64,000 nt of DNA from Otis tarda (Eukaryota > Chordata > Aves > Otidiformes > Otididae): positions 19,074,871 through 19,138,870 of the forward strand of contig CM048557.1 in assembly GCA_026413225.1 (NCBI GenBank), given 5' to 3'. Position numbers and translations under genes: made by a program. The notes below the pieces were generated by a model, which made no database searches, had not been told where the DNA came from, and worked only from the letters and a program-made list of their open reading frames with translations. How positions within the stretch are numbered: position 1 is the first letter of the stretch; each line of letters starts with the position of its first letter. Positions 10,701 through 56,500 of this stretch are shown here, piece by piece.

Positions 10701-11539
10701 CTTGATATTTCACAATCTACAGTTTGGAAGTAATCATATTCTACGATTTTAGTAATTTCAAGGGAAAAACTGCATCAATTCCTCATGTTAAGAAAATCAC
10801 ATTGTAGGTTTTCTAAGTATTCTATCCCTTTCACTGGTGGATCCAAAGAGAAAACATTGTATTTGGACATGGAAAATTTAGAGTTGGATCCTACCAATAG
10901 AAGTATTTGCATGAAAAGCTCATTATTAAAGTTTCACAGAATTTAAACTGCTTTTTAAAAAAATCTGTTTAGAGTTGGTTGTGCAAAAGCACATGTCTCA
11001 GCACAAAGAAAGAGATGAGCCTCAGAAAAGAAACAGCTCCTGTTTCTCATCCTCAGCTTGTAATATTCTTCAGTAACTTTTTGCTTCTGAGTCTTCTGAG
11101 GCAAAGGTTCAGACATAGACATTAGCATTGCTTTTTCTGCATCGCCATTACAACACTGTGTTCTAAGGATCAGACTGCTGCCTTTAAGTTCAGAACATCA
11201 GGCCAGCATGAGATGGGAGTCTTGAACAAATAATGGAGGAGAGTACTACAGCCAAAGAGCATGGCCTTCAGGATTTGGCTGTTAGTGAAGTATACAGAAA
11301 GACAGAACACAAAGCACTGTGTAAAACTACCAATAAAACCTTGTGGAAACTTTCCACTAGAGTGCAACCAGTAGTAGGAAATGTTAATCACTAAAGAGAC
11401 TAGGCAACCTCTATCCATTTTTTAGGACTTCTAATAAGATTAAGCTTCATTGTTTTTCCCCCCTTAGGTTTTTCATCATCTTTGAAATCACGAGAAGTGA
11501 CAATCATTCCACCTTTCCAGAACACACTAAAAGTAAAAG
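7785..11539 (+). CDS. MUC5AC: MUC5AC exons 1-3: signal peptide and N-terminal extension
   Basis: Exons are 7785-7857, 9824-9895 and 11468-11539 (73, 72 and 72 nt), all ending in phase 1. Exon 1 encodes a typical signal peptide: a basic/polar start (MGTGGGTR), then a hydrophobic core [15 protein letters not shown]. This targets the protein to the endoplasmic reticulum. Exons 2-3 encode a low-complexity polar segment up to the start of D1, corresponding to the short variable N-terminal region of human MUC5AC. The exon 2/3 junction encodes RQKR (residues 46-49), a consensus proprotein-convertase site. No domain is recognisable here. The start is fixed by the TATA box, the Kozak context and the signal peptide. 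Confidence 0.85.
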
Positions 11540-32500: not shown

Positions 32501-35500
32501 ATCATTATTAAATTAAGTAAAACTAAATTAAAATAATAATACTTATGGCAATAGTCTGAGAATTTTTATTAACATATCCTTAAAATCATTATGTTAAATT
32601 ATTTAGAAGTTACTAGGCAACTAATCTTCATTGTTTTGAGCTTGTTTCTCTTACTGTACTGGTACTTGTGTATTTGCAACAGTCAGCAAGTATTCCCACA
32701 CCTTCTGTCAGAACTGTTGACATACTGGGACAAGTGCTGCTAAGCCTTCTATCAAATAGCACAAAGTTAGCACAACCAGTTGTGAAGCAGTTAACACCTG
32801 TCCTAAGGTACCTTTAAAGTAGCTACACCTGAATACTGTAAGCAGTGCAGCCAAAATAGCAAAAAGGTTAGCACGAAGCCCATCTGAACTAACCCAACTT
32901 TCATGGTATGTTTCACAGTTCATAGACAGCTTTGCCTGCATCGTCTATATCATTAGCAGCACTAAACCTAACCTGTTAAAAGCATCTATATTTACTTAAG
33001 TTTATTCAGTGTACGGATATCCTTAGTCACTGAAAATAATTATATCAAGATTCAGTTCTTAACAGATAATATAAAAATTCCTGTAAAACCAGAATGCATT
33101 CTTACATCTTTTGGAAGTCTGATGGAAATTCTCTATGTAGATAACCTCAACATCCGTGATATAGTGATCCTTTCCCAAATGATAAATTTACTGCACTTTC
33201 CCTTCCAAAAAAATAAGTGTACCTATCAGGGAGAGAAAAACATTCCAAATCACTCTCCCCATATCTTTGTCCAGCCTCCAAAAGCACCAATAAGGATACT
33301 GCATGTTTAGTATGCTGGCATAGAAGAGTTACCTTTCTTGCCAGAAAACTGAGTGATCCTATCTAACCTGAATTTGTACTGCAGAATTGAATATCTAACT
33401 CAGAGAAGATAGGGTCTGTTTAAACACACAATGAATAGCAAAGGATCAATATAAAAAACTGGAACAATAAAATGATGTCTTGAATCAATATACTTACATT
33501 CATCATCTCCTTTTTTTTTTCTCTTTTCCAGTGAATGCACAAATCATGGCAAAACATGCAAATATGATAAATATGGTATGTTGACAAAGTTGTTTTTATT
33601 TGAATAGGATGCATTGAAGGTACTCTGCTCTGTATTTTGGGTACGAAGGAATAACACCCACTTTTGATTTACAGAATGTGTCTGCATTTATGAGGGCCAG
33701 AAATACAACTATAAAGATGTGATCTACAATACTACGGATGGCACAGGAGGATGTATTGTTGCAACCTGTGGTCCCAATGGAACACTTCAAAGGGTTGTCT
33801 ATGAATGTCCAATCTCAACTTCACCCACAACAGCAACAACGTTTCACTTCAGCACTATGCCACCTGTCACTACTTCCACAGGTACATCCCTTATAGCCCA
33901 TTCTGTGCATTAGCGAGTAAAATATAGCTACAAAACATGCCGACACACAAAATCTAAATGGATTAAGACTCAAAATAAATAACAGGAAGTCTCATTTGTT
34001 ACTAGCAGTTAGTTTCAGTTAGCATTTGGCAACCAATTTCATACAAGGAAATAAACATAGAAAATAAAACCACTTCCAAAGCATCAAAATGGAAACTACT
34101 GCACACTGATTTTATACTATTATTTTGCTTATCTTCATAATGAATGATAAAAAAACAGTATCAAATGTATTATCTGTAATCGTAACTATTTCTGTACCTG
34201 GAATAATCTTTAGTGAACAAATAATTAATTATTTTTCTATTAAATTTCATAATTATTACTTTCTGTAAAATTCTTGGTAGGGTTCATAGTATTTATAATT
34301 ACAGTACTAAGTGGATTGCTCAGATATTGGTGCTGAGATACTGAAATTTTCAATTCTAAAATTGTCATTCAGCATTCTTCAGGTTGGTAATCTTGAATTA
34401 CTGTGGGCACATGTTGTTTAATGAAATAAGTATTCAGTACAAAATTCAGAGCTACAAGTTTTGAAATCACGGAAACCATCATCACTGCTGGAATTCATTA
34501 GCCATTTTCCAGCCATTTCACAATGAGAATTCACGTGCAAAAGCTTACAGACTGCTCTCAAACCAATGAATGGTGATAAAAATGCTGCATTAGACACCTT
34601 TAACTTCAAATGGAGGAGCACAGACAATGCAGAGTATTACATGAGGAGTCAACTCATTTGGAAGAAAAAATTACCTATGAATCTTGATGCATAGACTAAA
34701 TGTTATTATTTCCACTGGATTTGAATCCAGGCTTTGACATTCGAGAGAGACTAATAAATACTGAAGCAAGATAGAAACCAAGTAATTATACTGAATCTAA
34801 CACAAAAAAAAGTATTTTTTTTTCCTCAATGTGTATAAATTATGACTGAGACTTGTTTCAGCACTTCGTAAAAAATAATTGGCATTCTCTTGGGAAGTGA
34901 CAGTTCCAAGCATGTCAGTACATTAAATTGCTAAGTGATGCATGGTCTTTTCTTTTTTCTCTTTCACAGTGTCACCAACTACATCAGTGTGTGTTCATGA
35001 AATCTGTGAGTGGTCAGAATGGTATGATGGGAGTCTGCAAACCCCTGGCTACGATGGTGGAGATTTTGAAACCTTTGATGATTTGAGAGCTAAAGGTTAT
35101 GAAGTCTGTAAAGCTCCACGGGCTGTTCAATGCAGAGCAGAGAAATTCCCTGATATACCACTGAAAAACCTTGGCCAAAAAGTAGAATGCAGTACAACAG
35201 CTGGGCTTCTATGTTACAACAAAGATCAAATTTCAACAATGTGCAACAACTACGAAATAAGAATCTTATGCTGTGTTTTTGTACCATGCTCTTCTACAAC
35301 ATATTCCAGCACATCATCAATGATCAAGAGTGTAGCTAAGAGCACAGAAACATCAAGTTCAACTGAAGAAATTACATCATTTTCAACCACAACTTCACCA
35401 TTTCCTACAACTTCTGAAAGTACAACATTCACAACTTCAACCACTACAGAAACAACTACAAGCACAACCGAAATGACAACACCTTTCACAACTACTCCTT

Positions 35501-38500
35501 CAACAATTTCTCCTTGCACTATAGAGGAATGTCACTGGTCAATGTGGTATGATGTCAGTTATCCAGGGTCTGGATATGATGATGGAGATTTTGATACAAT
35601 AAAAAACATCAGAAAAAAGGGATACGAAGTATGTGACAACAGAAAGGCTGTTGAATGTAGAGCAGTAAGGTTCCCAAATACACCATATCCTCTCCTGGAG
35701 CAACACATAACATGTAATACAGAAGAAGGATTAATATGCTACAACAAAGACCAGCTACCACCCATCTGCTATAATTATAAATTAAGATTTAAATGCTGTA
35801 CAAATATAACTGTACCGTGCCAGCCAATGATATCACCCACATCAACAACACCACAAATACAAACGAAACATAAGACAACAACAATATTAACGGCTCCACC
35901 ACAAACAGAATATATTCACACTAGAACAACATCACAAACAACAACACAAACACAATATGAAAAAAAGACTACAACAGTGCCAAGAACCACTACGCCAATC
36001 CCTACGACATTTTCCAGTATCATGACCTCCACCACCCAGTCCACCACCGCCTGTGAGCCCGAAGTGTGCTCCTGGAGCGAATGGTTCGACGTCGACTTCC
36101 CCTCCTCGGGGCCCGGCCAGGGAGACTTTGAAACCTACCAGCACATCCGGGCCGCCGGCAAGGAAGTCTGCCAGCATCCAAAGGAGATCGAGTGCCGGGC
36201 AGAGCGCTACCCCGAGGTTGCCATCCAGTACGTCGGACAGGTCGTGCAGTGCGACGTCCACTTTGGACTGGTGTGCAAGAACGAAGACCAGACCGGCACG
36301 CTTAAGATGTGCCTCAACTACAGGATCCGCGTGCTCTGCTGCAGCCCGAACTACAATTGCCCAACCAGCAGCCCCTTGCCCACCACCAGCCCCACCACCA
36401 TCACCACCAGCAGCTCAAGCAGCACCGCCCCAACCTCCACCTCGGTCACGACCTCCACCTCCACCTTCTACTCACCCACCACGCGGCCCACCTCCTCAGA
36501 AACCACATCGCAAACCTACACCACCACCACCACCAGCCCCACGCAAACACCTACCATCGTCTTCCCCACCGTGACCTCCACCACCCAGTCCACCACCGCC
36601 TGTGAGCCCGAAGTGTGCTCCTGGAGCGAATGGTTCGACGTCGACTTCCCCTCCTCGGGGCCCGGCCAGGGAGACTTTGAAACCTACCAGCACATCCGGG
36701 CCGCCGGCAAGGAAGTCTGCCAGCATCCAAAGGAGATCGAGTGCCGGGCAGAGCGCTACCCCGAGGTTGCCATCCAGTACGTCGGACAGGTCGTGCAGTG
36801 CGACGTCCACTTTGGACTGGTGTGCAAGAACGAAGACCAGACCGGCACGCTTAAGATGTGCCTCAACTACAGGATCCGCGTGCTCTGCTGCAGCCCGAAC
36901 TACAATTGCCCAACCAGCAGCCCCTTGCCCACCACCAGCCCCACCACCATCACCACCAGCAGCTCAAGCAGCACCGCCCCAACCTCCACCTCGGTCACGA
37001 CCTCCACCTCCACCTTCTACTCACCCACCACGTGGCCCACCTCCTCAGAAACCACATCGCAAACCTACACCACCACCAGCACCAGCCCCACGCAAACACC
37101 TACCATCGTCTTCCCCACCGTGACCTCCACCACCCAGTCCACCACCGCCTGTGAGCCCGAAGTGTGCTCCTGGAGCGAATGGTTCGACGTCGACTTCCCC
37201 TCCTCGGGGCCCGGCCAGGGAGACTTTGAAACCTACCAGCACATCCGGGCCGCCGGCAAGGAAGTCTGCCAGCATCCAAAGGAGATCGAGTGCCGGGCAG
37301 AGCGCTACCCCGAGGTTGCCATCCAGTACGTCGGACAGGTCGTGCAGTGCGACGTCCACTTTGGACTGGTGTGCAAGAACGAAGACCAGACCGGCACGCT
37401 TAAGATGTGCCTCAACTACAGGATCCGCGTGCTCTGCTGCAGCCTGAACTACAATTGCCCAACCAGCAGCCCCTTGCCCACCACCAGCCCCACCACCATC
37501 ACCACCAGCAGCTCAAGCAGCACCGCCCCAACCTCCACCTCGGTCACGACCTCCACCTCCACCTTCTACTCACCCACCACGCGGCCCACCTCCTCAGAAA
37601 CCACATCGCAAACCTACACCACCACCACCACCAGCCCCACGCAAACACCTACCATCGTCTTCCCCACCGTGACCTCCACCACCCAGTCCACCACCGCCTG
37701 TGAGCCCGAAGTGTGCTCCTGGAGCGAATGGTTCGACGTCGACTTCCCCTCCTCGGGGCCCGGCCAGGGAGACTTTGAAACCTACCAGCACATCCGGGCC
37801 GCCGGCAAGGAAGTCTGCCAGCATCCAAAGGAGATCGAGTGCCGGGCAGAGCGCTACCCCGAGGTTGCCATCCAGTACGTCGGACAGGTCGTGCAGTGCG
37901 ACGTCCACTTTGGACTGGTGTGCAAGAACGAAGACCAGACCGGCAAGCTTAAGATGTGCCTCAACTACAGGATCCGCGTGCTCTGCTGCAGCCCGAACTA
38001 CAATTGCCCAACCAGCAGCCCCTTGCCCACCACCAGCCCCACCACCATCACCACCAGCAGCTCAAGCAGCACCGCCCCAACCTCCACCTCGGTCACGACC
38101 TCCACCTCCACCTTCTACTCACCCACCACGTGGCCCACCTCCTCAGAAACCACATCGCAAACCTACACCACCACCACCACCAGCCCCACGCAAACACCTA
38201 CCATCGTCTTCCCCACCGTGACCTCCACCACCCAGTCCACCACCGCCTGTGAGCCCGAAGTGTGCTCCTGGAGCGAATGGTTCGACGTCGACTTCCCCTC
38301 CTCGGGGCCCGGCCAGGGAGACTTTGAAACCTACCAGCACATCCGGGCCGCCGGCAAGGAAGTCTGCCAGCATCCAAAGGAGATCGAGTGCCGGGCAGAG
38401 CGCTACCCCGAGGTTGCCATCCAGTACGTCGGACAGGTCGTGCAGTGCGACGTCCACTTTGGACTGGTGTGCAAGAACGAAGACCAGACCGGCACGCTTA

Positions 38501-41500
38501 AGATGTGCCTCAACTACAGGATCCGCGTGCTCTGCTGCAGCCCGAACTACAATTGCCCAACCAGCAGCCCCTTGCCCACCACCAGCCCCACCACCATCAC
38601 CACCAGCAGCTCAAGCAGCACCGCCCCAACCTCCACCTCGGTCACGACCTCCACCTCCACCTTCTACTCACCCACCACGTGGCCCACCTCCTCAGAAACC
38701 ACATCGCAAACCTACACCACCACCAGCACCAGCCCCACGCAAACACCTACCATCGTCTTCCCCACCGTGACCTCCACCACCCAGTCCACCACCGCCTGTG
38801 AGCCCGAAGTGTGCTCCTGGAGCGAATGGTTCGACGTCGACTTCCCCTCCTCGGGGCCCGGCCAGGGAGACTTTGAAACCTACCAGCACATCCGGGCCGC
38901 CGGCAAGGAAGTCTGCCAGCATCCAAAGGAGATCGAGTGCCGGGCAGAGCGCTACCCCGAGGTTGCCATCCAGTACGTCGGACAGGTCGTGCAGTGCGAC
39001 GTCCACTTTGGACTGGTGTGCAAGAACGAAGACCAGACCGGCACGCTTAAGATGTGCCTCAACTACAGGATCCGCGTGCTCTGCTGCAGCCCGAACTACA
39101 ATTGCCCAACCAGCAGCCCCTTGCCCACCACCAGCCCCACCACCATCACCACCAGCAGCTCAAGCAGCACCGCCCCAACCTCCACCTCGGTCACGACCTC
39201 CACCTCCACCTTCTACTCACCCACCACGCGGCCCACCTCCTCAGAAACCACATCGCAAACCTACACCACCACCAGCACCAGCCCCACGCAAACACCTACC
39301 ATCGTCTTCCCCACCGTGACCTCCACCACCCAGTCCACCACCGCCTGTGAGCCCGAAGTGTGCTCCTGGAGCGAATGGTTCGACGTCGACTTCCCCTCCT
39401 CGGGGCCCGGCCAGGGAGACTTTGAAACCTACCAGCACATCCGGGCCGCCGGCAAGGAAGTCTGCCAGCATCCAAAGGAGATCGAGTGCCGGGCAGAGCG
39501 CTACCCCGAGGTTGCCATCCAGTACGTCGGACAGGTCGTGCAGTGCGACGTCCACTTTGGACTGGTGTGCAAGAACGAAGACCAGACCGGCACGCTTAAG
39601 ATGTGCCTCAACTACAGGATCCGCGTGCTCTGCTGCAGCCCAAACTACAATTGCCCAACCAGCAGCCCCTTGCCCACCACCAGCCCCACCACCATCACCA
39701 CCAGCAGCTCAAGCAGCACCGCCCCAACCTCCACCTCGGTCACGACCTCCACCTCCACCTTCTACTCACCCACCACGCGGCCCACCTCCTCAGAAACCAC
39801 ATCGCAAACCTACACCACCACCAGCACCAGCCCCACGCAAACACCTACCATCGTCTTCCCCACCGTGACCTCCACCACCCAGTCCACCACCGCCTGTGAG
39901 CCCGAAGTGTGCTCCTGGAGCGAATGGTTCGACGTCGACTTCCCCTCCTCGGGGCCCGGCCAGGGAGACTTTGAAACCTACCAGCACATCCGGGCCGCCG
40001 GCAAGGAAGTCTGCCAGCATCCAAAGGAGATCGAGTGCCGGGCAGAGCGCTACCCCGAGGTTGCCATCCAGTACGTCGGACAGGTCGTGCAGTGCGACGT
40101 CCACTTTGGACTGGTGTGCAAGAACGAAGACCAGACCGGCACGCTTAAGATGTGCCTCAACTACAGGATCCGCGTGCTCTGCTGCAGCCCGAACTACAAT
40201 TGCCCAACCAGCAGCCCCTTGCCCACCACCAGCCCCACCACCATCACCACCAGCAGCTCAAGCAGCACCGCCCCAACCTCCACCTCGGTCACGACCTCCA
40301 CCTCCACCTTCTACTCACCCACCACGTGGCCCACCTCCTCAGAAACCACATCGCAAACCTACACCACCACCAGCACCAGCCCCACGCAAACACCTACCAT
40401 CGTCTTCCCCACCGTGACCTCCACCACCCAGTCCACCACCGCCTGTGAGCCCGAAGTGTGCTCCTGGAGCGAATGGTTCGACGTCGACTTCCCCTCCTCG
40501 GGGCCCGGCCAGGGAGACTTTGAAACCTACCAGCACATCCGGGCCGCCGGCAAGGAAGTCTGCCAGCATCCAAAGGAGATCGAGTGCCGGGCAGAGCGCT
40601 ACCCCGAGGTTGCCATCCAGTACGTCGGACAGGTCGTGCAGTGCGACGTCCACTTTGGACTGGTGTGCAAGAACGAAGACCAGACCGGCACGCTTAAGAT
40701 GTGCCTCAACTACAGGATCCGCGTGCTCTGCTGCAGCCCGAACTACAATTGCCCAACCAGCAGCCCCTTGCCCACCACCAGCCCCACCACCATCACCACC
40801 AGCAGCTCAAGCAGCACCGCCCCAACCTCCACCTCGGTCACGACCTCCACCTCCACCTTCTACTCACCCACCACGCGGCCCACCTCCTCAGAAACCACAT
40901 CGCAAACCTACACCACCACCAGCACCAGCCCCACGCAAACACCTACCATCGTCTTCCCCACCGTGACCTCCACCACCCAGTCCACCACCGCCTGTGAGCC
41001 CGAAGTGTGCTCCTGGAGCGAATGGTTCGACGTCGACTTCCCCTCCTCGGGGCCCGGCCAGGGAGACTTTGAAACCTACCAGCACATCCGGGCCGCCGGC
41101 AAGGAAGTCTGCCAGCATCCAAAGGAGATCGAGTGCCGGGCAGAGCGCTACCCCGAGGTTGCCATCCAGTACGTCGGACAGGTCGTGCAGTGCAACGTCC
41201 ACTTTGGACTGGTGTGCAAGAACGAAGACCAGACCGGCACGCTTAAGATGTGCCTCAACTACAGGATCCGCGTGCTCTGCTGCAGCCCGAACTACAATTG
41301 CCCAACCAGCAGCCCCTTGCCCACCACCAGCCCCACCACCATCACCACCAGCAGCTCAAGCAGCACCGCCCCAACCTCCACCTCGGTCACGACCTCCACC
41401 TCCACCTTCTACTCACCCACCACGTGGCCCACCTCCTCAGAAACCACATCGCAAACCTACACCACCACCAGCACCAGCCCCACGCAAACACCTACCATCG

Positions 41501-44500
41501 TCTTCCCCACCGTGACCTCCACCACCCAGTCCACCACCGCCTGTGAGCCCGAAGTGTGCTCCTGGAGCGAATGGTTCGACGTCGACTTCCCCTCCTCGGG
41601 GCCCGGCCAGGGAGACTTTGAAACCTACCAGCACATCCGGGCCGCCGGCAAGGAAGTCTGCCAGCATCCAAAGGAGATCGAGTGCCGGGCAGAGCGCTAC
41701 CCCGAGGTTGCCATCCAGTACGTCGGACAGGTCGTGCAGTGCGACGTCCACTTTGGACTGGTGTGCAAGAACGAAGACCAGACCGGCACGCTTAAGATGT
41801 GCCTCAACTACAGGATCCGCGTGCTCTGCTGCAGCCCGAACTACAATTGCCCAACCAGCAGCCCCTTGCCCACCACCAGCCCCACCACCATCACCACCAG
41901 CAGCTCAAGCAGCACCGCCCCAACCTCCACCTCGGTCACGACCTCCACCTCCACCTTCTACTCACCCACCACGTGGCCCACCTCCTCAGAAACCACATCG
42001 CAAACCTACACCACCACCAGCACCAGCCCCACGCAAACACCTACCATCGTCTTCCCCACCGTGACCTCCACCACCCAGTCCACCACCGCCTGTGAGCCCG
42101 AAGTGTGCTCCTGGAGCGAATGGTTCGACGTCGACTTCCCCTCCTCGGGGCCCGGCCAGGGAGACTTTGAAACCTACCAGCACATCCGGGCCGCCGGCAA
42201 GGAAGTCTGCCAGCATCCAAAGGAGATCGAGTGCCGGGCAGAGCGCTACCCCGAGGTTGCCATCCAGTACGTCGGACAGGTCGTGCAGTGCGACGTCCAC
42301 TTTGGACTGGTGTGCAAGAACGAAGACCAGACCGGCACGCTTAAGATGTGCCTCAACTACAGGATCCGCGTGCTCTGCTGCAGCCCGAACTACAATTGCC
42401 CAACCAGCAGCCCCTTGCCCACCACCAGCCCCACCACCATCACCACCAGCAGCTCAAGCAGCACCGCCCCAACCTCCACCTCGGTCACGACCTCCACCTC
42501 CACCTTCTACTCACCCACCACGCGGCCCACCTCCTCAGAAACCACATCGCAAACCTACACCACCACCACCACCAGCCCCACGCAAACACCTACCATCGTC
42601 TTCCCCACCGTGACCTCCACCACCCAGTCCACCACCGCCTGTGAGCCCGAAGTGTGCTCCTGGAGCGAATGGTTCGACGTCGACTTCCCCTCCTCGGGGC
42701 CCGGCCAGGGAGACTTTGAAACCTACCAGCACATCCGGGCCGCCGGCAAGGAAGTCTGCCAGCATCCAAAGGAGATCGAGTGCCGGGCAGAGCGCTACCC
42801 CGAGGTTGCCATCCAGTATGTCGGACAGGTCGTGCAGTGCGACGTCCACTTTGGACTGGTGTGCAAGAACGAAGACCAGACCGGCACGCTTAAGATGTGC
42901 CTCAACTACAGGATCCGCGTGCTCTGCTGCAGCCCGAACTACAATTGCCCAACCAGCAGCCCCTTGCCCACCACCAGCCCCACCACCATCACCACCAGCA
43001 GCTCAAGCAGCACCGCCCCAACCTCCACCTCGGTCACGACCTCCACCTCCACCTTCTACTCACCCACCACGCGGCCCACCTCCTCAGAAACCACATCGCA
43101 AACCTACACCACCACCAGCACCAGCCCCACGCAAACACCTACCATCGTCTTCCCCACCGTGACCTCCACCACCCAGTCCACCACCGCCTGTGAGCCCGAA
43201 GTGTGCTCCTGGAGCGAATGGTTCGACGTCGACTTCCCCTCCTCGGGGCCCGGCCAGGGAGACTTTGAAACCTACCAGCACATCCGGGCCGCCGGCAAGG
43301 AAGTCTGCCAGCATCCAAAGGAGATCGAGTGCCGGGCAGAGCGCTACCCCGAGGTTGCCATCCAGTACGTCGGACAGGTCGTGCAGTGCGACGTCCACTT
43401 TGGACTGGTGTGCAAGAACGAAGACCAGACCGGCAAGCTTAAGATGTGCCTCAACTACAGGATCCGCGTGCTCTGCTGCAGCCCGAACTACAATTGCCCC
43501 ACCAGCAGCCCCTTGCCCACCACCAGCCCCACCACCATCACCACCAGCAGCTCAAGCAGCACCGCCCCAACCTCCACCTCGGTCACGACCTCCACCTCCA
43601 CCTTCTACTCACCCACCACGTGGCCCACCTCCTCAGAAACCACATCGCAAACCTACACCACCACCACCACCAGCCCCACGCAAACACCTACCATCGTCTT
43701 CCCCACCGTGACCTCCACCACCCAGTCCACCACCGCCTGTGAGCCCGAAGTGTGCTCCTGGAGCGAATGGTTCGACGTCGACTTCCCCTCCTCGGGGCCC
43801 GGCCAGGGAGACTTTGAAACCTACCAGCACATCCGGGCCGCCGGCAAGGAAGTCTGCCAGCATCCAAAGGAGATCGAGTGCCGGGCAGAGCGCTACCCCG
43901 AGGTTGCCATCCAGTATGTCGGACAGGTCGTGCAGTGCGACGTCCACTTTGGACTGGTGTGCAAGAACGAAGACCAGACCGGCACGCTTAAGATGTGCCT
44001 CAACTACAGGATCCGCGTGCTCTGCTGCAGCCCGAACTACAATTGCCCAACCAGCAGCCCCTTGCCCACCACCAGCCCCACCACCATCACCACCAGCAGC
44101 TCAAGCAGCACCGCCCCAACCTCCACCTCGGTCACGACCTCCACCTCCACCTTCTACTCACCCACCACGCGGCCCACCTCCTCAGAAACCACATCGCAAA
44201 CCTACACCACCACCAGCACCAGCCCCACGCAAACACCTACCATCGTCTTCCCCACCGTGACCTCCACCACCCAGTCCACCACCGCCTGTGAGCCCGAAGT
44301 GTGCTCCTGGAGCGAATGGTTCGACGTCGACTTCCCCTCCTCGGGGCCCGGCCAGGGAGACTTTGAAACCTACCAGCACATCCGGGCCGCCGGCAAGGAA
44401 GTCTGCCAGCATCCAAAGGAGATCGAGTGCCGGGCAGAGCGCTACCCCGAGGTTGCCATCCAGTACGTCGGACAGGTCGTGCAGTGCGACGTCCACTTTG

Positions 44501-47500
44501 GACTGGTGTGCAAGAACGAAGACCAGACCGGCACGCTTAAGATGTGCCTCAACTACAGGATCCGCGTGCTCTGCTGCAGCCCGAACTACAATTGCCCAAC
44601 CAGCAGCCCCTTGCCCACCACCAGCCCCACCACCATCACCACCAGCAGCTCAAGCAGCACCGCCCCAACCTCCACCTCGGTCACGACCTCCACCTCCACC
44701 TTCTACTCACCCACCACGCGGCCCACCTCCTCAGAAACCACATCGCAAACCTACACCACCACCACCACCAGCCCCACGCAAACACCTACCATCGTCTTCC
44801 CCACCGTGACCTCCACCACCCAGTCCACCACCGCCTGTGAGCCCGAAGTGTGCTCCTGGAGCGAATGGTTCGACGTCGACTTCCCCTCCTCGGGGCCCGG
44901 CCAGGGAGACTTTGAAACCTACCAGCACATCCGGGCCGCCGGCAAGGAAGTCTGCCAGCATCCAAAGGAGATCGAGTGCCGGGCAGAGCGCTACCCCGAG
45001 GTTGCTATCCAGTACGTCGGACAGGTCGTGCAGTGCGACGTCCACTTTGGACTGGTGTGCAAGAACGAAGACCAGACCGGCACGCTTAAGATGTGCCTCA
45101 ACTACAGGATCCGCGTGCTCTGCTGCAGCCCGAACTACAATTGCCCAACCAGCAGCCCCTTGCCCACCACCAGCCCCACCACCATCACCACCAGCAGCTC
45201 AAGCAGCACCGCCCCAACCTCCACCTCGGTCACGACCTCCACCTCCACCTTCTACTCACCCACCACGCGGCCCACCTCCTCAGAAACCACATCGCAAACC
45301 TACACCACCACCACCACCAGCCCCACGCAAACACCTACCATCGTCTTCCCCACCGTGACCTCCACCACCCAGTCCACCACCGCCTGTGAGCCCGAAGTGT
45401 GCTCCTGGAGCGAATGGTTCGACGTCGACTTCCCCTCCTCGGGGCCCGGCCAGGGAGACTTTGAAACCTACCAGCACATCCGGGCCGCCGGCAAGGAAGT
45501 CTGCCAGCATCCAAAGGAGATCGAGTGCCGGGCAGAGCGCTACCCCGAGGTTGCCATCCAGTATGTCGGACAGGTCGTGCAGTGCGACGTCCACTTTGGA
45601 CTGGTGTGCAAGAACGAAGACCAGACCGGCACGCTTAAGATGTGCCTCAACTACAGGATCCGCGTGCTCTGCTGCAGCCCGAACTACAATTGCCCAACCA
45701 GCAGCCCCTTGCCCACCACCAGCCCCACCACCATCACCACCAGCAGCTCAAGCAGCACCGCCCCAACCTCCACCTCGGTCACGACCTCCACCTCCACCTT
45801 CTACTCACCCACCACGCGGCCCACCTCCTCAGAAACCACATCGCAAACCTACACCACCACCAGCACCAGCCCCACGCAAACACCTACCATCGTCTTCCCC
45901 ACCGTGACCTCCACCACCCAGTCCACCACCGCCTGTGAGCCCGAAGTGTGCTCCTGGAGCGAATGGTTCGACGTCGACTTCCCCTCCTCGGGGCCCGGCC
46001 AGGGAGACTTTGAAACCTACCAGCACATCCGGGCCGCCGGCAAGGAAGTCTGCCAGCATCCAAAGGAGATCGAGTGCCGGGCAGAGCGCTACCCCGAGGT
46101 TGCCATCCAGTACGTCGGACAGGTCGTGCAGTGCGACGTCCACTTTGGACTGGTGTGCAAGAACGAAGACCAGACCGGCACGCTTAAGATGTGCCTCAAC
46201 TACAGGATCCGCGTGCTCTGCTGCAGCCCGAACTACAATTGCCCAACCAGCAGCCCCTTGCCCACCACCAGCCCCACCACCATCACCACCAGCAGCTCAA
46301 GCAGCACCGCCCCAACCTCCACCTCGGTCACGACCTCCACCTCCACCTTCTACTCACCCACCACGCGGCCCACCTCCTCAGAAACCACATCGCAAACCTA
46401 CACCACCACCACCACCAGCCCCACGCAAACACCTACCATCGTCTTCCCCACCGTGACCTCCACCACCCAGTCCACCACCGCCTGTGAGCCCGAAGTGTGC
46501 TCCTGGAGCGAATGGTTCGACGTCGACTTCCCCTCCTCGGGGCCCGGCCAGGGAGACTTTGAAACCTACCAGCACATCCGGGCCGCCGGCAAGGAAGTCT
46601 GCCAGCATCCAAAGGAGATCGAGTGCCGGGCAGAGCGCTACCCCGAGATTGCCATCCAGTACGTCGGACAGGTCGTGCAGTGCGACGTCCACTTTGGACT
46701 GGTGTGCAAGAACGAAGACCAGACCGGCACGCTTAAGATGTGCCTCAACTACAGGATCCGCGTGCTCTGCTGCAGCCCGAACTACAATTGCCCAACCAGC
46801 AGCCCCTTGCCCACCACCAGCCCCACCACCATCACCACCAGCAGCTCAAGCAGCACCGCCCCAACCTCCACCTCGGTCACGACCTCCACCTCCACCTTCT
46901 ACTCACCCACCACGTGGCCCACCTCCTCAGAAACCACATCGCAAACCTACACCACCACCAGCACCAGCCCCACGCAAACACCTACCATCGTCTTCCCCAC
47001 CGTGACCTCCACCACCCAGTCCACCACCGCCTGTGAGCCCGAAGTGTGCTCCTGGAGCGAATGGTTCGACGTCGACTTCCCCTCCTCGGGGCCCGGCCAG
47101 GGAGACTTTGAAACCTACCAGCACATCCGGGCCGCCGGCAAGGAAGTCTGCCAGCATCCAAAGGAGATCGAGTGCCGGGCAGAGCGCTACCCCGAGGTTG
47201 CCATCCAGTATGTCGGACAGGTCGTGCAGTGCGACGTCCACTTTGGACTGGTGTGCAAGAACGAAGACCAGACCGGCACGCTTAAGATGTGCCTCAACTA
47301 CAGGATCCGCGTGCTCTGCTGCAGCCCGAACTACAATTGCCCAACCAGCAGCCCCTTGCCCACCACCAGCCCCACCACCATCACCACCAGCAGCTCAAGC
47401 AGCACCGCCCCAACCTCCACCTCGGTCACGACCTCCACCTCCACCTTCTACTCACCCACCACGTGGCCCACCTCCTCAGAAACCACATCGCAAACCTACA

Positions 47501-50500
47501 CCACCACCACCACCAGCCCCACGCAAACACCTACCATCGTCTTCCCCACCGTGACCTCCACCACCCAGTCCACCACCGCCTGTGAGCCCGAAGTGTGCTC
47601 CTGGAGCGAATGGTTCGACGTCGACTTCCCCTCCTCGGGGCCCGGCCAGGGAGACTTTGAAACCTACCAGCACATCCGGGCCGCCGGCAAGGAAGTCTGC
47701 CAGCATCCAAAGGAGATCGAGTGCCGGGCAGAGCGCTACCCCGAGGTTGCCATCCAGTACGTCGGACAGGTCGTGCAGTGCGACGTCCACTTTGGACTGG
47801 TGTGCAAGAACGAAGACCAGACCGGCACGCTTAAGATGTGCCTCAACTACAGGATCCGCGTGCTCTGCTGCAGCCCGAACTACAATTGCCCAACCAGCAG
47901 CCCCTTGCCCACCACCAGCCCCACCACCATCACCACCAGCAGCTCAAGCAGCACCGCCCCAACCTCCACCTCGGTCACGACCTCCACCTCCACCTTCTAC
48001 TCACCCACCACGCGGCCCACCTCCTCAGAAACCACATCGCAAACCTACACCACCACCACCACCAGCCCCACGCAAACACCTACCATCGTCTTCCCCACCG
48101 TGACCTCCACCACCCAGTCCACCACCGCCTGTGAGCCCGAAGTGTGCTCCTGGAGCGAATGGTTCGACGTCGACTTCCCCTCCTCGGGGCCCGGCCAGGG
48201 AGACTTTGAAACCTACCAGCACATCCGGGCCGCCGGCAAGGAAGTCTGCCAGCATCCAAAGGAGATCGAGTGCCGGGCAGAGCGCTACCCCGAGGTTGCC
48301 ATCCAGTACGTCGGACAGGTCGTGCAGTGCGACGTCCACTTTGGACTGGTGTGCAAGAACGAAGACCAGACCGGCACGCTTAAGATGTGCCTCAACTACA
48401 GGATCCGCGTGCTCTGCTGCAGCCCGAACTACAATTGCCCAACCAGCAGCCCCTTGCCCACCACCAGCCCCACCACCATCACCACCAGCAGCTCAAGCAG
48501 CACCGCCCCAACCTCCACCTCGGTCACGACCTCCACCTCCACCTTCTACTCACCCACCACGCGGCCCACCTCCTCAGAAACCACATCGCAAACCTACACC
48601 ACCACCACCACCAGCCCCACGCAAACACCTACCATCGTCTTCCCCACCGTGACCTCCACCACCCAGTCCACCACCGCCTGTGAGCCCGAAGTGTGCTCCT
48701 GGAGCGAATGGTTCGACGTCGACTTCCCCTCCTCGGGGCCCGGCCAGGGAGACTTTGAAACCTACCAGCACATCCGGGCCGCCGGCAAGGAAGTCTGCCA
48801 GCATCCAAAGGAGATCGAGTGCCGGGCAGAGCGCTACCCCGAGGTTGCCATCCAGTACGTCGGACAGGTCGTGCAGTGCGACGTCCACTTTGGACTGGTG
48901 TGCAAGAACGAAGACCAGACCGGCACGCTTAAGATGTGCCTCAACTACAGGATCCGCGTGCTCTGCTGCAGCCCGAACTACAATTGCCCAACCAGCAGCC
49001 CCTTGCCCACCACCAGCCCCACCACCATCACCACCAGCAGCTCAAGCAGCACCGCCCCAACCTCCACCTCGGTCACGACCTCCACCTCCACCTTCTACTC
49101 ACCGACCACGCGGCCCACCTCCTCAGAAACCACATCGCAAACCTACACCACCACCACCACCAGCCCCACGCAAACACCTACCATCGTCTTCCCCACCGTG
49201 ACCTCCACCACCCAGTCCACCACCGCCTGTGAGCCCGAAGTGTGCTCCTGGAGCGAATGGTTCGACGTCGACTTCCCCTCCTCGGGGCCCGGCCAGGGAG
49301 ACTTTGAAACCTACCAGCACATCCGGGCCGCCGGCAAGGAAGTCTGCCAGCATCCAAAGGAGATCGAGTGCCGGGCAGAGCGCTACCCCGAGGTTGCCAT
49401 CCAGTATGTCGGACAGGTCGTGCAGTGCGACGTCCACTTTGGACTGGTGTGCAAGAACGAAGACCAGACCGGCAAGCTTAAGATGTGCCTCAACTACAGG
49501 ATCCGCGTGCTCTGCTGCAGCCCGAACTACAATTGCCCAACCAGCAGCCCCTTGCCCACCACCAGCCCCACCACCATCACCACCAGCAGCTCAAGCAGCA
49601 CCGCCCCAACCTCCACCTCGGTCACGACCTCCACCTCCACCTTCTACTCACCCACCACGTGGCCCACCTCCTCAGAAACCACATCGCAAACCTACACCAC
49701 CACCACCACCAGCCCCACGCAAACACCTACCATCGTCTTCCCCACCGTGACCTCCACCACCCAGTCCACCACCGCCTGTGAGCCCGAAGTGTGCTCCTGG
49801 AGCGAATGGTTCGACGTCGACTTCCCCTCCTCGGGGCCCGGCCAGGGAGACTTTGAAACCTACCAGCACATCCGGGCCGCCGGCAAGGAAGTCTGCCAGC
49901 ATCCAAAGGAGATCGAGTGCCGGGCAGAGCGCTACCCCGAGGTTGCCATCCAGTACGTCGGACAGGTCGTGCAGTGCGACGTCCACTTTGGACTGGTGTG
50001 CAAGAACGAAGACCAGACCGGCACGCTTAAGATGTGCCTCAACTACAGGATCCGCGTGCTCTGCTGCAGCCCGAACTACAATTGCCCAACCAGCAGCCCC
50101 TTGCCCACCACCAGCCCCACCACCATCACCACCAGCAGCTCAAGCAGCACCGCCCCAACCTCCACCTCGGTCACGACCTCCACCTCCACCTTCTACTCAC
50201 CCACCACGTGGCCCACCTCCTCAGAAACCACATCGCAAACCTACACCACCACCACCACCAGCCCCACGCAAACACCTACCATCGTCTTCCCCACCGTGAC
50301 CTCCACCACCCAGTCCACCACCGCCTGTGAGCCCGAAGTGTGCTCCTGGAGCGAATGGTTCGACGTCGACTTCCCCTCCTCGGGGCCCGGCCAGGGAGAC
50401 TTTGAAACCTACCAGCACATCCGGGCCGCCGGCAAGGAAGTCTGCCAGCATCCAAAGGAGATCGAGTGCCGGGCAGAGCGCTACCCCGAGGTTGCCATCC

Positions 50501-53500
50501 AGTACGTCGGACAGGTCGTGCAGTGCGACGTCCACTTTGGACTGGTGTGCAAGAACGAAGACCAGACCGGCACGCTTAAGATGTGCCTCAACTACAGGAT
50601 CCGCGTGCTCTGCTGCAGCCCGAACTACAATTGCCCAACCAGCAGCCCCTTGCCCACCACCAGCCCCACCACCATCACCACCAGCAGCTCAAGCAGCACC
50701 GCCCCAACCTCCACCTCGGTCACGACCTCCACCTCCACCTTCTACTCACCCACCACGCGGCCCACCTCCTCAGAAACCACATCGCAAACCTACACCACCA
50801 CCACCACCAGCCCCACGCAAACACCTACCATCGTCTTCCCCACCGTGACCTCCACCACCCAGTCCACCACCGCCTGTGAGCCCGAAGTGTGCTCCTGGAG
50901 CGAATGGTTCGACGTCGACTTCCCCTCCTCGGGGCCCGGCCAGGGAGACTTTGAAACCTACCAGCACATCCGGGCCGCCGGCAAGGAAGTCTGCCAGCAT
51001 CCAAAGGAGATCGAGTGCCGGGCAGAGCGCTACCCCGAGGTTGCCATCCAGTACGTCGGACAGGTCGTGCAGTGCGACGTCCACTTTGGACTGGTGTGCA
51101 AGAACGAAGACCAGACCGGCACGCTTAAGATGTGCCTCAACTACAGGATCCGCGTGCTCTGCTGCAGCCCGAACTACAATTGCCCAACCAGCAGCCCCTT
51201 GCCCACCACCAGCCCCACCACCATCACCACCAGCAGCTCAAGCAGCACCGCCCCAACCTCCACCTCGGTCACGACCTCCACCTCCACCTTCTACTCACCC
51301 ACCACGCGGCCCACCTCCTCAGAAACCACATCGCAAACCTACACCACCACCACCACCAGCCCCACGCAAACACCTACCATCGTCTTCCCCACCGTGACCT
51401 CCACCACCCAGTCCACCACCGCCTGTGAGCCCGAAGTGTGCTCCTGGAGCGAATGGTTCGACGTCGACTTCCCCTCCTCGGGGCCCGGCCAGGGAGACTT
51501 TGAAACCTACCAGCACATCCGGGCCGCCGGCAAGGAAGTCTGCCAGCATCCAAAGGAGATCGAGTGCCGGGCAGAGCGCTACCCTGAGGTTGCCATCCAG
51601 TACGTCGGACAGGTCGTGCAGTGCAACGTCCACTTTGGACTGGTGTGCAAGAACGAAGACCAGACCGGCACGCTTAAGATGTGCCTCAACTACAGGATCC
51701 GCGTGCTCTGCTGCAGCCCGAACTACAATTGCCCAACCAGCAGCCCCTTGCCCACCACCAGCCCCACCACCATCACCACCAGCAGCTCAAGCAGCACCGC
51801 CCCAACCTCCACCTCGGTCACGACCTCCACCTCCACCTTCTACTCACCCACCACGCGGCCCACCTCCTCAGAAACCACATCGCAAACCTACACCACCACC
51901 ACCACCAGCCCCACGCAAACACCTACCATCGTCTTCCCCACCGTGACCTCCACCACCCAGTCCACCACCGCCTGTGAGCCCGAAGTGTGCTCCTGGAGCG
52001 AATGGTTCGACGTCGACTTCCCCTCCTCGGGGCCCGGCCAGGGAGACTTTGAAACCTACCAGCACATCCGGGCCGCCGGCAAGGAAGTCTGCCAGCATCC
52101 AAAGGAGATCGAGTGCCGGGCAGAGCGCTACCCCGAGGTTGCCATCCAGTATGTCGGACAGGTCGTGCAGTGCGACGTCCACTTTGGACTGGTGTGCAAG
52201 AACGAAGACCAGACCGGCAAGCTTAAGATGTGCCTCAACTACAGGATCCGCGTGCTCTGCTGCAGCCCGAACTACAATTGCCCAACCAGCAGCCCCTTGC
52301 CCACCACCAGCCCCACCACCATCACCACCAGCAGCTCAAGCAGCACCGCCCCAACCTCCACCTCGGTCACGACCTCCACCTCCACCTTCTACTCACCCAC
52401 CACGTGGCCCACCTCCTCAGAAACCACATCGCAAACCTACACCACCACCACCACCAGCCCCACGCAAACACCTACCATCGTCTTCCCCACCGTGACCTCC
52501 ACCACCCAGTCCACCACCGCCTGTGAGCCCGAAGTGTGCTCCTGGAGCGAATGGTTCGACGTCGACTTCCCCTCCTCGGGGCCTGGCCAGGGAGACTTTG
52601 AAACCTACCAGCACATCCGGGCCGCCGGCAAGGAAGTCTGCCAGCATCCAAAGGAGATCGAGTGCCGGGCAGAGCGCTACCCCGAGGTTGCCATCCAGTA
52701 TGTCGGACAGGTCGTGCAGTGCGACGTCCACTTTGGACTGGTGTGCAAGAACGAAGACCAGACCGGCACGCTTAAGATGTGCCTCAACTACAGGATCCGC
52801 GTGCTCTGCTGCAGCCCGAACTACAATTGCCCAACCAGCAGCCCCTTGCCCACCACCAGCCCCACCACCATCACCACCAGCAGCTCAAGCAGCACCGCCC
52901 CAACCTCCACCTCGGTCACGACCTCCACCTCCACCTTCTACTCACCCACCACGCGGCCCACCTCCTCAGAAACCACATCGCAAACCTACACCACCACCAC
53001 CACCAGCCCCACGCAAACACCTACCATCGTCTTCCCCACCGTGACCTCCACCACCCAGTCCACCACCGCCTGTGAGCCTGAAGTGTGCTCCTGGAGCGAA
53101 TGGTTCGACGTCGACTTCCCCTCCTCGGGGCCCGGCCAGGGAGACTTTGAAACCTACCAGCACATCCGGGCCGCCGGCAAGGAAGTCTGCCAGCATCCAA
53201 AGGAGATCGAGTGCCGGGCAGAGCGCTACCCCGAGGTTGCCATCCAGTATGTCGGACAGGTCGTGCAGTGCGACGTCCACTTTGGACTGGTGTGCAAGAA
53301 CGAAGACCAGACCGGCAAGCTTAAGATGTGCCTCAACTACAGGATCCGCGTGCTCTGCTGCAGCCCGAACTACAATTGCCCAACCAGCAGCCCCTTTCCC
53401 ACCACCAGCCCCACCACCATCACCACCAGCAGCTCAAGCAGCACTGCCCCAACCTCCACCTCGGTCACGACCTCCACCTCCACCTTCTACTCACCCACCA

Positions 53501-56500
53501 CGTGGCCCACCTCCTCAGAAACCACATCGCAAACCTACACCACCACCAGCACCAGCCCCACGCAAACACCTACCATCGTCTTCCCCACTGTGACCTCCAC
53601 CACCCAGTCCACCACCGCCTGTGAGCCCGAAGTGTGCTCCTGGAGCGAATGGTTCGACGTCGACTTCCCCTCCTCAGGGCCCGGCCAGGGAGACTTTGAA
53701 ACCTACCAGCACATCCGGGCCGCCGGCAAGGAAGTCTGCCAGCATCCAAAGGAGATCGAGTGCCGGGCAGAGCGCTACCCCGAGGTTGCCATCAAGTACG
53801 TCGGACAGGTCGTGCAGTGCGACGTCCACTTTGGACTGGTGTGCAAGAACGAAGACCAGACCGGCACGCTTAAGATGTGCCTCAACTACAGGATCCGCGT
53901 GCTCTGCTGCAGCCCGAACTACAATTGCCCAACCAGCAGCCCCTTGCCCACCACCAGCCCCACCACTAGTACTAGCAGCACTTCTTCTTTCCCTGTATCA
54001 AGACAGTGTTACTGTAAAGTTGGGGATGCCATTTTTTCACCTGGTTAGTTTTCCTCTTTTTCTTTGTTCATATGTAGCATATTTAATGTTTCTTGTTTAT
54101 TTTTCTTCACAGTTTTCCTTGCTTTCATTTTTTGCATATTCATAATTTTTTTTTTGAAATTTTTTAATTCCTTTTTTATCTTTTTCCTTTTTTTTATCTT
54201 TTTTTTTCTTTTTATCTTAATGTTTTTTCTTGATTTTCTTCAGGTGAATTGATTTATAACAGAATGGATAGTGATGGTTGTAGGTTTTATGCCATCTGCA
54301 GTCCAACATGTACAATCGAACGACACACTGTAGATTGTAACATTACTACTCCTCTAACCACAACTTCAAGCGAATGGTCTCCTGTAACATCAGTTCCTCT
54401 GCTTACCTCTTCTGGAAGAGTTCCTTTTCATGGTTGTGTTTCTGCCACTCACCCTCCCCTACAGGTATGTAGTTTCCCTATTTTGTCATGGTTGTTGAAG
54501 TAACAATGTTAGCTTGATACTAAAAGTGAACAGTTTGTATTCTTTAAAACTTATATTAGCAGACTGTCTGAATATGTGTTGCTAGTCATGAGTAACATAA
54601 ATTACATAAAGTTTTATGTGCCTTCTTTATCATTTTTTTTTTCATACTGGCAAAGCAAGCCTCAATAATATTTTCTAATTTCTTTAGTGCTAGTAAAACA
54701 CTTTCTGAGGCACTGCATTGTATAAAAAATATATCTTCTTACGGAAATAATTGAGGAAGTTTTCTTCTGCATTGTATCTGTTTCTATTCTCCTCTTACCT
54801 TTACCTCTGTATATGTTCTTTTTTTCTTTTTTTTTGACAGTGATGGTTTATGCTGATAGTTAAGTACAGTATACATAGCTAGTATAAAGGACACAAATTC
54901 TCTTAAAAGAAGATGTATCCCCTCAAATCTCAGAAAAGCTCCTCCTGCAGAAGATATAGCTGGAATTAAGGTTCCCACCTCTTTTCAGCACTAGTAAAAT
55001 TAGTTGTGTAGAGTATTGTCAACCTTGTACTATCAGTGAAGATCTTAATTTCAGTCTTTGCTTCAGATTTGCAAAACAAAACAGTTTCTGATCCTTCATA
55101 TCATGGTTAGAATATGAATCTCTCTAGTCAACATTACAAGTCATTAGTACCACAAATTGAAGAGAAGTAACACATACTAATTTCCTTTCCAACACCACCA
55201 TTACTGGAAACAATATAGCATTAAAGCTGAAATATGAGCAAATATATTTACAAACTCCTGTGACGGTATTTTTTGTTCATTTTGCAGCCTGAACAAAGAT
55301 ACAAGATATCCAACTGTACAGAACTCATCTGTAAGGGAGACAACAAGGTAGAAGTAATTCCAACGCACTGCCCACCTGTAAAGGAAATTACCTGTGCAAA
55401 CAAATATCCAGCAATACTGGTACCAGATGAAAATGGCTGCTGTTACAGATATGAGTGTCAATGTAAGCACCAGTAGATTAAGGAATAATGTTTTTTGAAA
55501 AAAGCAAAACTTTGCACACATTATAGAGGCATTTTGTTTCTTAGGGTTGCTCTATAAATTGTAGTGTATTCACGTCAGTTTCTAAATTACATCTTCTACG
55601 TTAAATTTAATATTAATCTTCTAAATATTTTCTGTCTACCAGGTGTGTGCAGTGGATGGGGAGATCCTCATTATATTACTTTTGATGGAACCTACTATAC
55701 TTTCCTTGAAAACTGTACTTACGTCCTAGTGAAACAGATCATACCTAAATATGATAACTTCCGTGTTTATATTGACAATTATTACTGTGATGCAGAAGAT
55801 GGACTGTCCTGCCCTAAATCCATTATTATTTTCTACAAATCTGCAGAAGTGGTGCTGACGCGTAAACTCATGAATGGTGTGATGACCAATGTGGTAAAAT
55901 ACACATTTTTTATTTCTATATATTTTGTAAAAAAAGAAAAAAGTTCCATAGGCCTTACTTATTCTCTTTTAAAATATAGTCTGTTAGGATATCATATCAT
56001 GGAGGTGATGAGGGCAGAGGGTATCATGGGGGGTTGGGGGGGAAGAGTTACACCAGTTTCTAAGAATAAAATGTCAGAAACAGCTTAGCACTATGCAGAT
56101 ATTAATATACTATGTGCATGTATGTATATACATAAATAATACTAGGAAACAGACTAATACAGCCAATAGAGAAGACAGAAAGAATGCTTATACTGGTGCT
56201 TGATTCACATTTCATGAAAACTTGTACGTTGTGCCATTCACTTACGTAAAAAAAAACACATTACGAAGAAACAGATGCAAATCACAAGCATGATTCTTCT
56301 CTAATGGTGAAGATGCATATATATGCCTTATCAGCTGGATAACTAGGGACCGCTTCCTCTGAAGGGGGAACTTCAGGCACCAGAATCATGACATAATTCC
56401 CTCTCCAATTCCCTGCTGGGAAGAGAGGTATAGATGAAGAAAAGGGGTGACTGGGGGTGTCACTTCACCTTCACAATCCTAAACTAGTGCTGGCGAGTCA

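What the first reader, a model, noticed from the sequence alone, without database searches (positions are those of the whole stretch)
36023..53966. A 33-copy CysD tandem array inside one mucin exon
Thirty-three near-identical 183-residue units, each a CysD domain plus a mucin-like linker, follow two divergent CysDs, for a total of 35. From memory, human MUC5AC has about 9 CysD domains and MUC5B about 7. If CysD domains cross-link mucin chains non-covalently, as proposed for MUC2 and MUC5B, this protein would have a very high cross-link density. It could make an unusually stiff or adhesive mucus, for example in saliva, oviduct or crop. I do not know of this expansion being described, but I cannot search.
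Basis: partly seen in the sequence, partly recalled or inferred. Interest (0 to 1): 0.92.

Follow-up and report, generated by a model that had tools for sequence, protein, structure and literature searches.

The report
Bird MUC5AC with 35 CysD domains
This is a bird's mucus gene (MUC5AC) whose central exon carries 35 copies of a small domain thought to link mucus chains; it looks real, and many birds carry 20 or more such copies where humans have about nine, so it is an extreme case of a bird pattern and not a one-off.

Summary
One 19.1-kb open frame holds two divergent CysDs and 33 near-identical ones in 549-bp units. All 35 keep ten cysteines and a WxxW. The exon lies in a MUC5AC gene with VWD and C8 domains on both sides. 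The assembly is contiguous (116 contigs, 1.2 Gb). Units stay in register without indels, and no block of more than two units recurs. A looped assembly is therefore unlikely, but no reads were examined.

It is not unique. MUC5AC-type proteins of 64 bird species have a median of 23 CysDs, maximum 32. Of 68 bird proteins, 53 begin CysD1, CysD2, array. In 18 birds the array copies cluster by species while CysD1 and CysD2 cluster by position: concerted evolution. The window's 35 exceeds all 131 proteins counted. Ten searches of an open-access library listed no paper on this.

GC jumps at both array edges, while within-array variants run 16:1 from GC to AT, which fits GC-biased conversion. Extra non-covalent cross-linking is inference, supported by a published artificial CYSx12 protein.

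The parts
7785..7862 (+). first MUC5AC coding exon match (hydrophobic N-terminus, signal-peptide-like)
   Evidence: tblastn of Balearica regulorum MUC5AC (P0011) residues 1-26, 81% identity; only the match extent, not the exact exon ends
9823..33880 (+). N-terminal MUC5AC exons (28 further matches): three VWD, three C8 and three TIL stretches
   Evidence: collinear tblastn matches of P0011; Pfam VWD 2.1e-82, C8 2.9e-50, TIL 1.7e-17 on the joined matches
34970..54043 (+). giant central exon (about 19.07 kb) inside the 6369-codon open frame
   Evidence: open frame; acceptor AG before 34970 and donor GT after 54043 read by eye (inferred, no transcript)
34990..35295 (+). CysD1 (divergent, AT-rich)
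   Evidence: HMM residues 18-119, 140.2 bits; clade C1 in the tree
35515..35826 (+). CysD2 (divergent, AT-rich)
   Evidence: HMM residues 193-296, 132.0 bits; clade C2 in the tree
36023..53966 (+). homogenised array: 32 full 549-nt units plus a 33rd truncated in its linker; each CysD of about 105 residues plus a Ser/Thr/Pro-rich linker of about 78
   Evidence: GC 0.62 against 0.38 in 79 outside windows
36052..36366 (+). first array CysD (example of the 33)
   Evidence: phmmer to human MUC5AC CysD 8ov0, 6e-38; MUC5B CysD 8oer, 6.2e-24; MUC2 CysD 6tm6, 2.1e-23; Pfam PF13330 finds 4 stretches in 34939-36897
53620..53934 (+). last (35th) CysD
   Evidence: HMM residues 6228-6332, 157.5 bits
54244..63946 (+). 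C-terminal MUC5AC exons (VWD, C8 and Cys-rich segments); the gene runs on past the window end
   Evidence: tblastn of P0011; Pfam VWD 1.4e-28, C8 8.3e-17; last ortholog match at L012:2517-2741, outside the window

Best explanation
The locus is the MUC5AC gene of a neoavian bird. Its central exon keeps two old CysDs (positions 1 and 2) and a tandem array of one CysD-plus-linker unit that grows, shrinks and is homogenised by unequal exchange and gene conversion (shown as concerted evolution), probably with GC-biased conversion (inferred). The product is a gel-forming mucin of about 8.5 thousand residues (estimate) that should polymerise by its N- and C-terminal domains as other gel-forming mucins do (family knowledge). 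Its 35 evenly spaced compact CysDs, separated by 78-residue O-glycan linkers, would act as many weak non-covalent contact points between chains, giving a tighter gel than a 9-CysD mucin (inferred; not shown).
For: Gene identity: collinear exon matches to bird MUC5AC, mean identity over up to 21 exons 92.8% to crane and 83.0% to ostrich; VWD, C8, TIL and WxxW by Pfam; best solved relative of the unit is a human MUC5AC CysD. Reality of the array: no N, unit register kept, 18 distinct sequences among 32 units, no recurring block over two units; contiguous assembly; 20-32 copies in 50 of 64 other bird species. Concerted evolution: within-species mean array identity 0.90-1.00 (window 0.995) against 0.77-0.92 between the window and the 11 species printed; array copies of each of 18 birds group together; differences grow with separation (r 0.20, p 0.005; without the last unit r 0.13, p 0.036). 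GC-biased conversion: GC3 0.84 in the array against 0.27 in the neighbouring CysD1-CysD2 stretch and mean 0.43, maximum 0.67, in 34 other exon segments, with sharp edges, although variants run 16 GC>AT to 1 AT>GC. Function: all 35 domains keep 10 Cys and WxxW; a recombinant protein of 12 CYS domains tightened mucus mesh and slowed bacteria and sperm (PMC6861317, abstract and introduction).
Against: No expression, protein or gel data for any bird. Human MUC5AC CysD1 was not seen in the N-terminal filament, so MUC5AC CysDs need not bind the way MUC2 CysD1 does (PMC11912381 passages). Amino acid variants among copies are not significantly depleted (8 seen, 10.8 expected, p 0.12), so constraint on individual copies is not shown. 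The amino-acid proxy for GC bias in other birds is uninformative (array above both CysD1 and CysD2 in 35 of 60). Copy number varies widely (9-32 between species; 28, 20 and 12 in three zebra finch models), which may be drift or annotation.
Confidence: 0.72

Rival explanations
1. The array is real, but its length is selectively neutral within broad limits: unequal crossing-over makes copy number wander, and extra CysDs add little to gel properties.
For: Copy number varies between close species and between models of one species; no significant depletion of amino acid changes among copies; mucin repeat length is highly variable in humans (PMC13345508 passages).
Against: The frame, ten cysteines and WxxW survive in 35 of 35 domains; 50 of 64 bird species keep 20 or more; bird proteins have more CysDs than the 52 non-bird proteins of the same list (median 23 against 12.5, a list chosen by similarity to a bird, so biased).
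Confidence: 0.35
2. Extra CysDs serve assembly inside the cell (folding, C-mannosylation of WxxW, granule packing) or protease and glycan spacing more than cross-linking after secretion.
For: The authors of PMC6861317 suggest a role of CYS C-mannosylation in mucin trafficking (introduction); MUC2 CysD1 packs into the N-terminal bead filament (PMC11912381 passages).
Against: The CYSx12 protein altered mucus after secretion (abstract); one packing role does not explain dozens of copies.
Confidence: 0.25
3. The copy number is an assembly error (looped or wrongly phased repeat); the true array is much shorter.
For: Units are nearly identical and the 18-kb array is as long as many long reads; no reads were examined here. 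The neighbouring MUC5B-like repeat in the same assembly has apparent frame breaks.
Against: No recurring block over two units and no indel in 18 kb; contiguous 71-Mb contig without N in the stretches read; similar arrays in independent assemblies of dozens of birds; no PF13330 array hit on another contig.
Confidence: 0.07

Closest known systems
MUC5AC predicted proteins of other birds (e.g. Columba guinea P0001, Strigops habroptila P0002, Balearica regulorum P0011)
   Same: Same gene, same plan of CysD1, CysD2 and a homogenised array with units of about 164-191 residues; 53 of 68 bird proteins begin this way.
   Different: The window has 35 CysDs; the highest of the 68 bird proteins is 32. Its own linker and array sequence (best array match Balearica 92%).
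Human MUC5AC
   Same: CysDs alternating with PTS in one large exon; VWD-C8-TIL N-terminus; several near-identical CysDs (PMC9712336 passages).
   Different: About nine CysDs (PMC11912381), with long short-repeat PTS tracts between them, instead of 35 at one fixed spacing.
rCYSx12, an artificial protein of 12 CYS domains
   Same: Many copies of one CysD in one chain (PMC6861317).
   Different: Artificial, consecutive CYS domains, not part of a polymerising mucin.
CysD-rich proteins elsewhere: Oikosin1 (13 CYS), fish 'Mucin-5AC' (little skate 27)
   Same: Large CysD numbers in secreted gels (PMC6861317 introduction; PMC11765562 passages).
   Different: The fish protein lacks the VWD regions of human MUC5AC according to that paper; neither is a bird MUC5AC.

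Membership tests
MUC5AC (gel-forming mucin) | N-terminal VWD-C8-TIL assemblies (D1-D2-D'-D3) | tested here: met
   Pfam: 3 stretches each of VWD, C8 and TIL on the joined tblastn matches
MUC5AC (gel-forming mucin) | Central large exon with CysD domains in Ser/Thr/Pro-rich sequence | tested here: met
   35 CysDs; linker 78% S/T/P
MUC5AC (gel-forming mucin) | C-terminal VWD4/C8 | tested here: met
   Pfam VWD 1.4e-28 and C8 8.3e-17
MUC5AC (gel-forming mucin) | C-terminal cystine knot | tested here: inconclusive
   the last part of bird MUC5AC (residues 792-866 of the P0002 C-terminal piece) matches L012:2517-2741 at 85%; no Pfam test was made, and naming it the cystine knot is recall
MUC5AC (gel-forming mucin) | Orthology to MUC5AC and not to MUC5B or MUC2 | tested here: met
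   matches to bird proteins named mucin-5AC, 83-93% over up to 21 exons; separate CysD exons lie on the same contig at 18.92 Mb and 19.20 Mb. Names are those of the sources (one, Colius P0028, is called mucin-5B); no tree of VWD domains was made
CysD (PF13330, Mucin2_WxxW) | about 100 residues, ten cysteines, WxxW | tested here: met
   35 of 35 domains; Pfam 6.5e-115 on the first 653 residues; solved human CysDs match
CysD (PF13330, Mucin2_WxxW) | Fold confirmed by model | tested here: inconclusive
   single-sequence model poor, mean pLDDT 49.7; no fold search was run on it
Concerted-evolution tandem array | Copies within a species closer to each other than to copies of other species | tested here: met
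   the tree has few columns, unsettled bootstrap and a long-branch warning, but each of the 18 species' array copies group together
Non-covalent cross-linker of mucin chains | Self-association of the domain after secretion | not testable with these tools
   needs purified protein

The most novel reading that the evidence does not exclude
Birds have turned MUC5AC into a natural poly-CysD polymer: an exon in which one CysD-linker unit is kept near-identical by GC-biased exchange at 20-35 copies, so that the density of weak cross-links, and with it mucus mesh size, is set by a rapidly tunable copy number.
Probability: 0.3. Interest if true: 0.65.

Novelty: new variant of a known kind. Interest (0 to 1): 0.45.

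Why it matters
How CysD number affects mucus has been tested mainly with an artificial protein. Birds offer natural orthologues with from about ten to 35 CysDs at a nearly fixed spacing, so the link between CysD number and gel mesh could be tested across species. The exon is also a clear case of concerted evolution with a sharp GC step at the array edges. It is a reminder that predicted lengths of such genes depend on long-read assembly.

Tried and rejected
Uniqueness of the expansion: rejected. Assembly loop: tested by looking for recurring runs of unit types; the longest is two units. Purifying selection among copies: tested, not significant (8 nonsynonymous variants of 19, 10.8 expected, p 0.12). 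GC bias in other birds by amino acid composition: uninformative (array above both in 35 of 60; mean ratio 0.83 against 0.81 for CysD1). Structure model of one unit without an alignment: poor, so no fold search was run. Tissue: papers for bird MUC5AC expression; a cited quail immunostaining paper (Liman et al. 2010, seen only in a reference list) is not held. Rfam and tRNA scans of the window: nothing. Species: no exact match; closest by coding exons a crane (92.8%), closest by linker Columba (0.73). Rows dropped: species counts use only domains matching more than 85 HMM positions with over 20 bits; four extra models of species already counted were merged (two zebra finch, one Agelaius, one Pithys). 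Only the 120 listed of 367 hits and the 11 new ones of the 120 listed of 274 were counted.
Full report
OBSERVATION. The window holds a single + strand frame without stops from 34939 to 54048 (6369 codons). From 36023 it consists of 549-nt units in exact register: 32 full units and a 33rd that has a whole CysD and leaves the repeat at about 53966. Full units differ from unit 5 at 0-7 of 549 positions. There are 18 distinct sequences among the 32 and, with the 33rd, 19 variant sites. Before the array come two divergent CysDs (34990-35295 and 35515-35826). An HMM built from these three types and then from 452 domains of relatives finds 35 CysDs. Every one has ten cysteines and a WxxW. The unit is a CysD of about 105 residues plus a linker of about 78 that is 78% Ser, Thr or Pro.

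THE GENE. tblastn with bird MUC5AC proteins lays collinear exon matches on both sides: from 7785 to 33880 upstream and from about 53935 to the window end downstream. Pfam finds three VWD, three C8 and three TIL stretches upstream and one VWD and one C8 downstream. The last ortholog match lies in the next 10 kb (L012:2517-2741). Splice sites of the giant exon were read by eye as 34970-54043. With the crane's N- and C-terminal lengths the protein would be about 8.5 thousand residues (estimate). The best solved relative of the unit is a human MUC5AC CysD (8ov0, 6e-38), ahead of MUC5B and MUC2 CysDs. The bird is neoavian by similarity: 92.8% to Balearica, 91.9% to Phalacrocorax, down to 83.0% for ostrich, over up to 21 exon segments. 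No exact species was found.

IS IT REAL? The genome has 1.198 Gb in 116 contigs; the window is C6:19074871-19138870 on a 71-Mb contig. PF13330 hits elsewhere are four CysDs at C6:19.195-19.200 Mb, two at 18.922-18.925 Mb, one on C29 and one weak on C11; no other array was listed. In the array there are no indels, and the longest recurring run of unit types is two, which argues against an assembly loop. Independent bird assemblies show similar arrays. Reads were not available, so the exact number remains to be confirmed.

HOW COMMON? Two protein searches listed 131 different proteins (120 of 367 hits; 11 new among the 120 listed of 274 hits), all counted with the HMM. Sixty-eight are from birds, 64 species: median 23 CysDs, quartiles 20 and 25, maximum 32 (Columba guinea); 50 of 64 have 20 or more and 4 have 30 or more. 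Low counts (down to 9) may be incomplete models; three zebra finch models have 28, 20 and 12. The 52 non-bird proteins of the first list have a median of 12.5 and a maximum of 29, the MUC5B of the bat Pteronotus mesoamericanus. Of the 11 added, the highest is 26 (Rhynchocyon petersi MUC5B) and alligator MUC5B has 24.

ARCHITECTURE AND EVOLUTION. Of 68 bird proteins, 53 begin CysD1-CysD2-array; six (chicken, duck, Cyrtonyx, Mergus, ostrich, Tympanuchus) have a further CysD between 1 and 2; nine differ or lack the start. A tree of 108 CysDs from 18 birds puts CysD1 (support 92/82), CysD2 (100/99), the extra type (98/86) and array copies (90/92) each on one side of a branch, and the array copies of each of the 18 birds group by species. 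The program warns of few columns, an unsettled bootstrap and long branches between CysD1/2 and the array, so deep joins are not trusted. Mean identity within arrays is 0.90-1.00, window 0.995, against 0.77-0.92 between the window's array consensus and those of the 11 species printed. Sequence differences grow with distance along the array (r 0.198, p 0.005; 0.131 and 0.036 without the last unit), and the last full unit is the most divergent (7 of 549). This is the expected pattern for unequal exchange and conversion. Human MUC5AC too has six nearly identical CysDs (PMC9712336, passages), and weaker homogenisation at array ends is reported for human mucins (PMC13345508, passages).

GC STEP. GC rises from 0.39 to 0.66 in adjacent 90-bp bins at 36023 and falls from 0.62 to 0.41 at 53966. 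GC3 is 0.84 in the array and 0.27 in the CysD1-CysD2 stretch of the same exon; 34 other exon segments average 0.43 with a maximum of 0.67. The neighbouring MUC5B-like CysDs in this genome have GC3 0.33-0.55. Yet among the 19 variant sites 16 go from GC to AT and one from AT to GC, taking the majority base as ancestral; 12 are at CpG. Mutation therefore pushes the array towards AT, and something holds it at high GC. GC-biased gene conversion during homogenisation is my best explanation. It is inferred from one genome and few variants, and the amino-acid proxy in 60 birds was uninformative (35 of 60).

FUNCTION. Gel-forming mucins polymerise through their ends; CysDs are proposed to make weak contacts along the chain. 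A secreted 12-CYS protein lowered mucus permeability and mesh size and slowed bacteria and sperm (PMC6861317, abstract and introduction). The authors of the chicken MUC2 paper suggested that more CysDs could mean smaller pores (PMC3549977, passages). A 35-CysD MUC5AC would be a natural test. Against a simple reading, human MUC5AC CysD1 was not seen bound in the N-terminal filament (PMC11912381, passages), and amino acid changes among copies are not significantly depleted. Neutral copy-number drift is therefore a serious rival.

IN PRINT? The ten paper searches listed no paper on CysD expansion in bird MUC5AC. The chicken inventory of 2006 states that the Muc5ac sequence had a large gap (PMC1552070, passages). 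The library holds open-licence papers only, so absence is not proven. Predicted proteins with such arrays are already in public databases under the name mucin-5AC.

VERDICT. A real and extreme member of a bird-wide MUC5AC architecture that I could not find described. It is a new variant of a known kind and of moderate interest.

Noticed in passing
L009:859-7560 and onward into L013 (genome C6, about 19.195-19.206 Mb): Neighbouring mucin exon (MUC5B by position, inferred): 2234-residue frame with four CysDs and a 312-nt PTS repeat; the repeat continues in other frames after the first frame ends, i.e. apparent frame breaks.
   Followed up: partly
P0063, P0121, P0122: Large CysD numbers in MUC5B of a bat (Pteronotus mesoamericanus, 29), an elephant shrew (Rhynchocyon petersi, 26) and alligator (24): expansion seems to have happened more than once and in another mucin.
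   Followed up: no
P0023, P0037, P0045, P0051, P0064, P0074: A further CysD type between CysD1 and CysD2 in fowl, ducks and ostrich, absent from the CysD1-CysD2-array proteins; it formed one group in the four species placed in the tree, so probably lost in Neoaves.
   Followed up: partly
window 21693-22585: Open frames resembling a CR1-type retroelement reverse transcriptase (recognised by eye, from recall); the part 21968-22585 has no Pfam match at 0.001.
   Followed up: no
window 2682-2767: Perfect 12-bp tandem repeat, 7.2 copies of CACCATGGGCTG, in an open frame without Pfam match.
   Followed up: no
G000:C29:110183-110434 and C11:14005472-14005648: Lone PF13330 hits outside the mucin locus; CILP-type genes are my guess from recall.
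   Followed up: no
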